The notes under the pieces: generated by a model | Database searches by the model: none | What the model saw: only the letters and a program-made list of their open reading frames with translations | Told to the model about the DNA's origin: nothing | IMG/VR virus record: IMGVR_UViG_3300001686_000001 | Coordinates: 1 to 41,720 of that record | Direction: 5' to 3' (one strand) | DNA length: 41,720 nucleotides | From: a virus | Shown here: positions 25,292-27,612 of the stretch, in pieces | Layout of the letters: the number at the start of each line of letters is the position of its first letter | How positions within the stretch are numbered: the first letter of the stretch is position 1 | Program-made: the position numbers and the translations under genes

Positions 25292-27556
25292 CTAGAACTC
25301 ACGCCATTGCGCGCCGGGGTTCCACTCGCCCAGGGTGCGTTCCACGCGGGATCCTGCCATCTCCGGACGACGATCTGGGAGGATCTTGGCCGTGACCAGG
25401 TACCTCAACGCTGCCAGGGAGTTGTGCACCAAGACGCCATTGGCGAAGAATTCTGGACAATCCTCAATCTCCAGGTTGTACACCCTCTGCGGTGGTAGTT
25501 CGACGGGTGATCCAGGCGCATTTCTTAGAACAGTGCCCTGTGGCGAAGTACCTGTTACATTCAAAATTTTCTCCACAGGCACGACAAACCCTTGTTTCAT
25601 AGTCGAGTCTGTTAGTCCTGCGATAGGCAGATTTACATTTTCCCGAACAGAATCTAGCCCAGGTGAAGTACTCAAAACTTGTCCCACATTGGTCACAACG
25701 GCGAACGAGTGGCCTGGCTCGCATTGCTTCCCAAGCTCTGCGAGCCAACTCTTGACCCCATTCTTGACCCTTGGAAGTAGTCCTAAAATCGCTCGCCGCC
25801 TGGCCGAGACGAGAGATGTTTTCCCAAGACTCCTGCCAAGAAATACGCCCAGGTGTTCTTTCTTTGGAATGTTCTCGCAAGTGATCTCCGGCGGGGAGAC
25901 ATTCCAGGTTTTCAAGGGCATTGTTGAGAGGATTCTTGTCCTTGTGATGGATGTGATAACCGCTTGGAATCTCTCCATGAGCGTTAGCCCAGGCGCGACG
26001 AGCGCGTTTGTGAGCGTTCCTCTTCTCGTTAGCAGTAAGCACGTATCGGATTGTAGCAAACCAAGGGGCTTCCATCCCCGCAAGGTCAATATGGGATGTT
26101 GATAAGTACCCGTCAATCCCCCCAAATCCAACACGGGTTGGTTCTCTCCAGTTACCCCAGACCAAAGAACCTTCTTCCAACCTTGTCTAGTTAGAACCTT
26201 GTCAGAAGTGGCAACCGACTCAATTGGAATAGAACCGCGCGCAGTCGTAACTAAGGTTCCCGAAATGAGACAGTGTCCGTGGCGTGTTTCCCAGAAGGGA
26301 TCGACCACTTCTCCGGTGACCGCATCCAGCGGAGCGAACCTGACCTGGTCTGCCAGGACGGGGCAATCCTCCGTGAAGAACAACCTCGGGGAGCCGTAGA
26401 CGGGGTCAGAAGAATCTGCTGCGCGAGGATGCCAGTCGGGAAAAGCGAGGCTGGGGTCAGGGCGTAGTAGTTCTGCGATCCTGACGAGCCCTGCGCGCCT
26501 ATCGTTGTTAGCTGGTACGAGATTGATCCCGTGCTTGGCGAACTCGCTGTGAACGGTGTCCCCACGTCCTCCTGCCGAGCCGATCCCGAACCCCGTCCGC
26601 GATTGGATGGAAGGATCACAAAGAGCCAGAGAAGGTTCACCCCAACGATTAGCGCGATTAGTATGGATTCGTGACGCATGGTCTGAGATCAGTCCCGGGC
26701 TGTAGTACTCGCCGTAGACCACGACATGGCCCTCGGGAGAAACACCGGCAGGATACCACGCGGTGGGGTTGGTGACCCCGAAGTCCATCGCCTCCCAGCG
26801 GCGCCAATCGTAGGGCGGGTAGAAAGTGGGAACAACATGGATCTGAGGATCGAAGTGAGGAAAGCAAGCCGAGTCGATGGCCTCCCAGGAGCCCTCGATC
26901 AGACGGGCCTGCGTGGCCTCGGGAAGCTGCTGAAGTGACACCAGGTAACTATCCGCGTCGATATGAGGATTATCCCGGAACGTGGCCGGGAGGAAGATCC
27001 TATCCTTGCTACCCGACTCCAGGAACCGCTTACGAACCCAGGTCGTGCCGGGGCCTACGGGGTTACTGGCGCATCGAACGCGCAGTGGGATGTCAGAACC
27101 TTTCAGCTTACGCAGGCGAGAGAAGAGAAACGTGTACCCGATATCGTCGGGGAATTCGGTAACTTCGTCCCAAGCTATGTACTGGAACTCCGCAGACTGG
27201 TACCTGAGCCGGTCGGTGGGGGTCTGAATGTACCCGAAGGTGATCGCCGCTCCGGAAGGGAACTCGAACGTGTGAGTTTCTCGGTCGTAGCGCACATCCC
27301 GGAACGGCTTCAACCATTCGTGACACCTGTCCATGATCGCGCCGGGGAGAGCTAGGTCTGTGTAACTACGCCGGAAGATGATCGCCGCATAGTTCGGCCT
27401 GTCCACGTACTGGAGCGCGCCCATCAGAAGAGCATCGGACTTCCCCCCACCGGCCGCGCCTCCGTACAACCCCTCCAGGCCGTCATAGAGCAGGAACGCT
27501 GCCTGCTTGGGACTTGGAACGTGCGGGATATACGTCGTTAACTTCAACGTCGCCAT
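25292..27556 (-). CDS. Terminase large subunit with intein, 754-aa precursor
   Basis: Walker A GGAAGGGKS (32-40) and Walker B IAWDEVTEF (127-135) mark the packaging ATPase. AMDFGVTNP (Asp258) and LCDPSIQ (Asp314) start the RNase H-like nuclease. Residues 429-712 are an intein (25421-26272). Extein joining gives RHGH-SLAALRYLV, the place of the usual H-x-x-D-A-L-R-Y motif, but with Ala where Asp is common. ATG 27556 has GGAG upstream and is overlapped by a leader ORF whose first residues match its own. The mature protein would be about 470 residues, normal for the family. Confidence 0.85.
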   Translation of the reverse strand: MATLKLTTYIPHVPSPKQAAFLLYDGLEGLYGGAAGGGKSDALLMGALQYVDRPNYAAIIFRRSYTDLALPGAIMDRCHEWLKPFRDVRYDRETHTFEFPSGAAITFGYIQTPTDRLRYQSAEFQYIAWDEVTEFPDDIGYTFLFSRLRKLKGSDIPLRVRCASNPVGPGTTWVRKRFLESGSKDRIFLPATFRDNPHIDADSYLVSLQQLPEATQARLIEGSWEAIDSACFPHFDPQIHVVPTFYPPYDWRRWEAMDFGVTNPTAWYPAGVSPEGHVVVYGEYYSPGLISDHASRIHTNRANRWGEPSLALCDPSIQSRTGFGIGSAGGRGDTVHSEFAKHGINLVPANNDRRAGLVRIAELLRPDPSLAFPDWHPRAADSSDPVYGSPRLFFTEDCPVLADQVRFAPLDAVTGEVVDPFWETRHGHCLISGTLVTTARGSIPIESVATSDKVLTRQGWKKVLWSGVTGENQPVLDLGGLTGTYQHPILTLRGWKPLGLLQSDTCLLLTRRGTLTNALVAPGLTLMERFQAVITSITRTRILSTMPLKTWNVSPPEITCENIPKKEHLGVFLGRSLGKTSLVSARRRAILGLLPRVKNGVKSWLAELGKQCEPGHSFAVVTNVGQVLSTSPGLDSVRENVNLPIAGLTDSTMKQGFVVPVEKILNVTGTSPQGTVLRNAPGSPVELPPQRVYNLEIEDCPEFFANGVLVHNSLAALRYLVTAKILPDRRPEMAGSRVERTLGEWNPGAQWREF
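25421..26272 (-). mobile_element. Intein in the large terminase (284 aa)
   Basis: Block A begins Cys429 CLISGTLVTT; block B is GTYQHPILTLRGW with T-x-x-H. The C-terminal block VYNLEIEDCPEFFANGVLVHN has the penultimate His and final Asn, and Ser follows as +1 residue. The insertion is in the nuclease active-site region, a usual intein site. The middle of the terminase frame shows no endonuclease; an HNH gene lies there in the -1 frame. Confidence 0.85.
25464..26075 (-). CDS. HNH homing endonuclease nested in the intein in the -1 frame, 203 aa
   Basis: The frame (open from 26180; first ATG 26075) contains HIHHKDKNPLNNALENLECL ... GDHLREH, a complete HNH motif (about residues 41-69). Two zinc fingers follow: CDQCGTSFEYF ... 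FCSGKC and CRACGENFECN ... HCSKKC. All are typical of phage HNH homing enzymes. It lies wholly within the intein DNA but not in its frame. It has no clear ribosome-binding site; internal initiation or -1 frameshifting at 26117-26123 are possible routes. Confidence 0.8.
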   Translation of the reverse strand: MEAPWFATIRYVLTANEKRNAHKRARRAWANAHGEIPSGYHIHHKDKNPLNNALENLECLPAGDHLREHSKERTPGRISWQESWENISRLGQAASDFRTTSKGQEWGQELARRAWEAMRARPLVRRCDQCGTSFEYFTWARFCSGKCKSAYRRTNRLDYETRVCRACGENFECNRYFATGHCSKKCAWITRRTTTAEGVQPGD

Positions 27557-27600
27557 GCGATTCTCCGAATCGTGTAGATGGTCAGCTTGAGCGTTGCCAC
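27544..27600 (-). CDS. Leader peptide repeating the terminase N-terminus, 18 aa
   Basis: GTG 27600 lies six bases after TAGAGT. The peptide MATLKLTIYTIRRIAWRR shares MATLKLT-x-Y with the large terminase, but most of the shared codons differ at synonymous sites. Its stop (TGA, 27546-27544) lies ten bases inside the terminase gene, so termination is close to the terminase ATG and could feed re-initiation. Confidence 0.55.
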   Translation of the reverse strand: MATLKLTIYTIRRIAWRR

Positions 27601-27606
27601 GCGATC

Positions 27607-27612
27607 ACTCTA
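27607..27612 (-). promoter_or_regulatory. Leaderless promoter -10 (TAGAGT) for the terminase leader
   Basis: TAGAGT plus six bases (GATCGC) precedes GTG 27600. The large terminase ATG would then have a 44-nt leader fully translated as the leader ORF. Confidence 0.55.

What the first reader, a model, noticed from the sequence alone, without database searches (positions are those of the whole stretch)
27544..27612. Terminase leader peptide that copies the terminase N-terminus
A leaderless GTG ORF (TAGAGT-N6-GTG) encodes MATLKLTIY; 44 nt later the terminase starts MATLKLTTY. The shared residues use different codons for Ala, Leu, Leu, Thr and Tyr, so the match is at peptide level and not a fresh DNA duplication. 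The leader stop lies 10 nt inside the terminase. The same design recurs at the capsid and at 38615. It may be a system in which a leaderless leader captures ribosomes and hands them to the true start, or in which the nascent peptide regulates the gene.
Basis: partly seen in the sequence, partly recalled or inferred. Interest (0 to 1): 0.82.

Follow-up and report, generated by a model that had tools for sequence, protein, structure and literature searches.

The report
Duplicated gene start before phage terminase
In one uncultured phage the terminase gene is preceded by a tiny reading frame that repeats the gene's first nine amino acids; the tiny frame sits where related phages start the gene itself, so it looks like a kept copy of the old start that may still load ribosomes, and there is no sign that the peptide regulates anything.

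Summary
On the minus strand TAGAGT-N6-GTG opens an 18-codon ORF (VATLKLTIY...) 44 nt before the terminase ATG (MATLKLTTY). By permutation the match has a chance rate of about 0.001 for this window, and 5 of 6 differing codons are synonymous. The capsid has a weaker but homology-supported counterpart: at 37208 a GTG-ACT-GCC-GAA start at the position where close relatives start the capsid, then 38 extra nt, then ATA-ACT-GCC-GAG. The third case (38615) is weak, because its best leaderless start lies inside the matching stretch.

TANNNT-N6-start is a statistically clear leaderless signal in this phage and its relatives. In relatives it usually stands directly before the terminase and capsid; here 38-44 nt lie between.

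Best explanation: the leader is the ancestral leaderless start. A start-region duplication, or recombination with an orthologue, placed a second, SD-bearing start out of frame just downstream. The old start may still be translated as a minicistron coupled by termination-reinitiation; leaderless coupled small ORFs are known in mycobacteria. Peptide-based regulation has no direct support.

The parts
27607..27612 (-). -10-like element TAGAGT, 6 nt before the leader GTG
   Evidence: TANNNT at spacing 6 is enriched before long ORFs in this phage and relatives
27544..27600 (-). leader mini-ORF VATLKLTIYTIRRIAWRR*
27558..27572 (-). 6-bp/3-nt hairpin CGATTC-gga-GAATCG ending 1 nt before the terminase ATG; holds the SD-like GGAG (27566-27563)
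25292..27556 (-). terminase large subunit, 754 aa, with an intein-like insert; N-terminus MATLKLTTY is copied by the leader
   Evidence: phrog_979 E 7e-50; alignment A1
37196..37201 (+). -10-like element TATTCT before the capsid leader
37208..37249 (+). capsid leader mini-ORF VTAEKKSLCGDRP* at the position where relatives start the capsid gene
37235..37241 (+). GGTGATC, SD-like stretch before the ATA (resemblance to the complement of the bacterial 16S 3' end is from general knowledge)
   Evidence: sequence
37246..38445 (+). major capsid protein; first codon by homology is ATA (relatives GTG/ATG); the leader stop TAA overlaps it (ATAA)
   Evidence: phrog_14242 E 3.5e-32; homology begins at 37246
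38570..38575 (+). -10-like TATGCT, 7 nt before ATG 38583
38583..38618 (+). mini-ORF MLEQRKRGNLA* (from upstream ATG 38571: MLDLMLEQRKRGNLA*); stop overlaps the next start (GTGA)
38600..38614 (+). 6-bp/3-nt hairpin GCGAGG-gaa-CCTCGC abutting the GTG, with SD-like GAGGGA
38615..39013 (+). gene of unknown function, 132 aa, VIDLMLEGRIQ...; homologues in relatives lie near the capsid gene too

Best explanation
The leader is the ancestral, leaderless start of the terminase gene, kept in place after a second start was placed 44 nt downstream and out of frame. Relatives start the terminase (and mostly the capsid) directly at a TANNNT-N6/7-start. In this phage 38-44 extra nt lie between that promoter/start and the gene body. 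The extra DNA ends in a second copy of the first codons preceded by an SD-like sequence, at the terminase inside a small hairpin. The origin was either an old tandem duplication of the start region or a misaligned exchange with an orthologous gene from a related phage; either gives matching peptides with diverged codons. Most likely working today (inferred): RNA polymerase starts at or next to the leader GTG; a ribosome translates the 18-codon leader and opens the hairpin over the SD; it then stops within about 10 nt of the gene start and reinitiates there. Shown: positions, frames, statistics of the match, relatives' starts, leaderless signal enrichment. Inferred: transcription start, translation of the leader, coupling, and the origin event.
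For: Leaderless signal: TANNNT peaks at spacing 6 before starts of ORFs >=80 aa (13 in the window against about 1-2 at most other spacings; same in close relatives G003, G005, G007-G011). Relatives' terminase starts: G003 TAGACT-N6-GTG, G005 TAGTCT-N7-GTG, L062-L064 TATGCT-N6-ATG; none has a leader. Capsid: relatives start GTG/ATG-ACN-GCN-GAR; the window has GTGACTGCCGAAA, identical to G003 over 13 nt, at the leader, then ATAACTGCCGAG 38 nt further on. Offsets 44 and 38 are both 2 mod 3, the frame relation of ATGA/TGATG couplings. Hairpins abut the starts of 27556 and 38615. Each step has a precedent: leaderless -10 motif 6-7 bp upstream (PMC12340547), coupling by termination-reinitiation with SD and local structure proposed to block de novo starts (PMC6728339), leaderless small ORFs joined to genes by RTGA in mycobacteria (PMC4633059).
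Against: No transcript or ribosome data. The terminase has its own ATG and a GGAG at good spacing, so it may not need the leader. Overall folding of the leader RNAs is no stronger than shuffles (z 0.89, -0.65, -1.09). Leaderless mini-ORFs that stop near a gene start are not clearly more frequent at spacing 6/7 than at other spacings. A neutral leftover should have lost its peptide if the event is old. Other genes of this phage are still plainly leaderless (e.g. 23430, 25260), so there was no general need to change.
Confidence: 0.5

Rival explanations
1. Pure recombination stump: the terminase (and capsid) gene bodies were replaced from a related phage; the first codons of the displaced orthologue remain with their promoter and are now functionless. 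The peptide match is orthology.
For: Synonymous differences dominate (5 of 6 codons), as expected between orthologous starts. The capsid leader is identical to G003 over 13 nt. The phage encodes an exonuclease VIII-like recombination protein (19250-19996). No relative keeps the leader.
Against: It needs more than one independent event with similar size (38-44 nt) and the same frame relation. No donor phage with the leader's own codons at a gene start was found. It does not explain an ATA at the capsid gene start, which needs some help to be translated.
Confidence: 0.3
2. The leader peptide itself acts: the nascent copy of the terminase N-terminus regulates the gene.
For: Peptide-level match with different codons.
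Against: No relative has it. The capsid copy shares only TAE. The third case loses most of its match from the best leaderless start. Two scans of viral contigs found no other example.
Confidence: 0.05
3. Programmed bypassing: ribosomes start at the leader and hop 38-44 nt onto the matching codons of the second copy, as in T4 gene 60.
For: The capsid copy lacks a canonical start codon (ATA) and shares the identical codons ACT GCC plus the pair GAA/GAG at both sites.
Against: In the terminase both copies are conserved over nine codons, and both Leu pairs (CTC/TTG, CTG/TTA) would normally need different tRNAs; the terminase has ATG and SD of its own. No frame-changing insert of this size inside a gene was seen when relatives' ORFs were compared with the window.
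Confidence: 0.06
4. Chance plus pattern seeking.
Against: The terminase match is about 0.001 for this window and the capsid case is anchored by homology.
Confidence: 0.05

Closest known systems
Leaderless small upstream ORFs coupled to genes by RTGA in mycobacteria (PMC4633059)
   Same: Leaderless start, short ORF, stop overlapping or near the next start, proposed ribosome delivery.
   Different: There the small proteins are not described as copies of the downstream protein; here the leader repeats the gene's first residues, and it is in a phage of unknown host.
-10 region adjacent to ORFs in Deinococcus-Thermus (PMC12340547)
   Same: TANNNT 6-7 bp before the start drives leaderless expression; GGAG motifs serve other genes.
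   Different: There the motif stands before the gene itself; here before a mini-ORF at two or three genes.
Translational coupling by termination-reinitiation (PMC6728339)
   Same: Frame relation (2 mod 3), stop at or near the start, SD before the second start, local structure over the SD.
   Different: Studied there between full genes; here an 11-18 codon leader; coupling not tested.
Phage T4 gene 60 bypassing
   Same: A gap of about 50 nt between two matching codons (general knowledge); the capsid case lacks a canonical start codon.
   Different: The terminase copies match by residue and not by tRNA, and the second copy has its own start.

Membership tests
Leaderless mini-ORF (TANNNT-N6/7-start) | -10 element 6-7 nt before the start codon | tested here: met
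   27612 TAGAGT-N6-GTG; 37196 TATTCT-N6-GTG; 38570 TATGCT-N7-ATG; enrichment
Leaderless mini-ORF (TANNNT-N6/7-start) | transcript begins at the start codon | not testable with these tools
   no RNA data
Coupling by termination-reinitiation | stop overlapping or within a few nt of the next start | tested here: met
   terminase stop 10 nt inside; capsid ATAA; 38615 GTGA
Coupling by termination-reinitiation | SD before the second start | tested here: met
   GGAG (terminase), GAGGGA (38615), GGTGATC (capsid), read from the sequence
Coupling by termination-reinitiation | downstream expression depends on upstream translation | not testable with these tools
   needs reporters
Regulatory leader peptide | leader peptide conserved in relatives | tested here: not met
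   no relative examined has it
Programmed bypassing | take-off and landing codons read by the same tRNA, no start at landing | tested here: inconclusive
   fits the capsid (ACT GCC GAR, ATA), not the terminase (Leu codon pairs, own ATG)

The most novel reading that the evidence does not exclude
A phage keeps translated copies of its proteins' N-termini in front of head genes, under peptide-level selection, as leaderless ribosome-loading leaders whose sequence must match the gene start.
Probability: 0.07. Interest if true: 0.75.

Novelty: new variant of a known kind. Interest (0 to 1): 0.36.

Why it matters
If the leader is translated, it shows a simple route by which a leaderless gene gains an SD-led, coupled start: duplicate the start region and keep the old start as a ribosome loader. 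That bears on how leaderless and SD initiation interconvert. It also warns that start sites of leaderless phage genes are easily misplaced: a mechanical ORF call puts the capsid start at TTG 37270, inside the protein. If it is only a stump, it is a neat marker of gene replacement at phage gene boundaries.

Tried and rejected
Searched for siblings carrying the duplicated terminase start by a degenerate pattern with two copies: only contig L056 (= L003) of the same sample. Same for the capsid: none. Searched prokaryote genomes with the terminase alignment: only distant relatives, no host inferred. Capsid in the phage collection: no match. tblastn of relatives' ORFs against the window for 38-44 nt inserts inside genes, the expectation under general bypassing: none seen. 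Frameshift fusion of leader and gene: considered by eye; no slippery site seen, and the gene frame has a stop just upstream in the capsid case. RNA-level switch by repeated segments: codon differences argue against; folds no better than shuffles. Sequencing error: the only disagreement with contig L019 is a 1-nt indel near 23740, away from the feature; the window's version keeps the frame seen in G003. Rfam: no family in the window. tRNA: none. The 33615/33749 pair first taken for the 'capsid' case is not the capsid (DUF932 gene) and was dropped.

Full report
Observation. The terminase large subunit (27556-25292, minus strand; phrog_979, E 7e-50) is preceded by TAGAGT-gatcgc-GTG at 27612-27598. 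The GTG opens an 18-codon ORF, VATLKLTIYTIRRIAWRR*, whose stop lies 10 nt inside the terminase, which begins MATLKLTTY. Offset 44 nt, frame +2. Among 5113 gene-start/upstream-start pairs in 76 sequences a score this high came up about twice in 150 permutations of the whole set, or about 0.001 for the 340 pairs of this window. The two 27-nt copies share 6/9, 8/9 and 3/9 bases at codon positions 1, 2 and 3, and 5 of 6 differing codons are synonymous (P 1.5e-4 under random change; the pair was noticed for its peptide match, so this is not an independent test). So both copies probably have a history as coding sequence.

Other cases. Capsid: relatives G003, G005 and L020-L025 start the gene GTG/ATG-ACN-GCN-GAR. 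The window has GTGACTGCCGAAA at 37208, with TATTCT six nt upstream, then at 37246 ATAACTGCCGAGTCC, from where homology to the relatives' capsid runs on. The leader ORF VTAEKKSLCGDRP* ends in a TAA that overlaps the ATA. The shared peptide is only TAE, but the position of the leader is the ancestral start. Gene 38615: MLDLMLEQR (38571) and VIDLMLEGR (38615) match at offset 44, expected about 0.007 times per window scan (rates). However TATGCT-N7-ATG points to 38583 as the leaderless start, which leaves MLEQR/MLEGR. I count this case as weak.

Leaderless grammar. TANNNT stands 6 nt before the start of long ORFs far more often than at other spacings in the window and in G003, G005 and G007-G011, and not in the more distant G012-G015 and G006. 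This resembles the leaderless signal of Deinococcus-Thermus (PMC12340547). The host is unknown; the genome scan gave only distant terminases.

Relatives. Terminase homologues at 60-71% identity mostly start directly at such a signal: G003 TAGACT-N6-GTG, G005 TAGTCT-N7-GTG, L062-L064 TATGCT-N6-ATG. None carries a copied leader. L060 has a longer spacing (TACGAT-N11-ATG) and no copy. A two-copy degenerate pattern in 2.9 million viral contigs found only the same sample's second contig; the capsid equivalent found nothing.

Anatomy of the second start. At the terminase and at 38615 a 6-bp/3-nt hairpin holding the SD (GGAG; GAGGGA) abuts the start codon; the capsid has GGTGATC. Whole-leader folding energies are not unusual. 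Offsets 44 and 38 are 2 mod 3, the relation of ATGA and TGATG couplings. A further mini-cistron, 35841-35948 (35 codons, hydrophobic, stop overlapping the next start), shows a leaderless ORF before a gene that is itself leaderless in G003, without any copying.

Mechanism. The plainest account: the leader is the old leaderless start; a start-region duplication or a misaligned exchange with an orthologue put a second, SD-bearing start just downstream. If RNA still starts at 27600, the leader should be translated and its ribosomes end at the terminase start. Coupling by termination-reinitiation is then expected, with the hairpin limiting de novo starts as proposed for E. coli gene pairs (PMC6728339). 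Leaderless small ORFs joined to genes by RTGA are described in mycobacteria (PMC4633059). All of this last part is inference.

Rivals. A functionless stump explains the peptide match equally well and cannot be separated from the above without siblings. Peptide-mediated regulation lacks support in relatives. Bypassing fits the capsid case, which has ATA for a start and identical codons at both sites, but not the terminase, where the Leu pairs would need different tRNAs and the second copy has ATG and SD; comparison with relatives' ORFs showed no frame-changing inserts of this size within genes.

Verdict. Observation confirmed; interpretation partly supported; a new variant of a known kind (leaderless coupled mini-ORF), with moderate interest.

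Noticed in passing
25292-27556 (-), residues about 428-711 of P0001: Intein-like insert in the terminase after HGH (CLISGTLV...ANGVLVHN/S); relatives G003, L006 and G005 lack it. Hint_2 match E 5.9e-5 is below Pfam's cut-off; PDB intein-like 2lwy at E 0.08 only.
   Followed up: partly
24329 (-): Structural-region gene whose relatives start with ATG begins with ATC-GCT-ACC here, right after the previous gene's stop and an AAAGGAAAG; with the capsid ATA this is a second near-cognate start in this phage.
   Followed up: partly
35841-35948 (+): Leaderless 35-codon hydrophobic ORF (MRHEAQIKGWPAALLMVVILLGIVDVIVRLLEVIF) inserted between a -10 element and a gene that is itself leaderless in G003.
   Followed up: partly
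38445-38563 (+): 14-codon ORF MSDARVSPLAGFAR* with a hairpin abutting the next ATG (ATGA overlap), followed by a 25-aa hydrophobic ORF MSLLWIIVIVILVLALVGFFGRGYY.
   Followed up: no
whole window: 33 perfect hairpins with stem of at least 6 bp and a 3-nt loop, against 8-14 in mononucleotide shuffles; several lie in coding sequence or include -10 elements.
   Followed up: partly
24341-24729 (-): Two tandem small genes both matching the single G003 17546-17794 protein.
   Followed up: no
about 23740: Contig L019 of the same metagenome has one extra C relative to the window; the window's version keeps the frame of the G003 homologue.
   Followed up: yes
40575-40979 (+); 18046-18513 (-): HNH endonuclease (HNH_3) and Dam-type DNA methyltransferase genes.
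   Followed up: no
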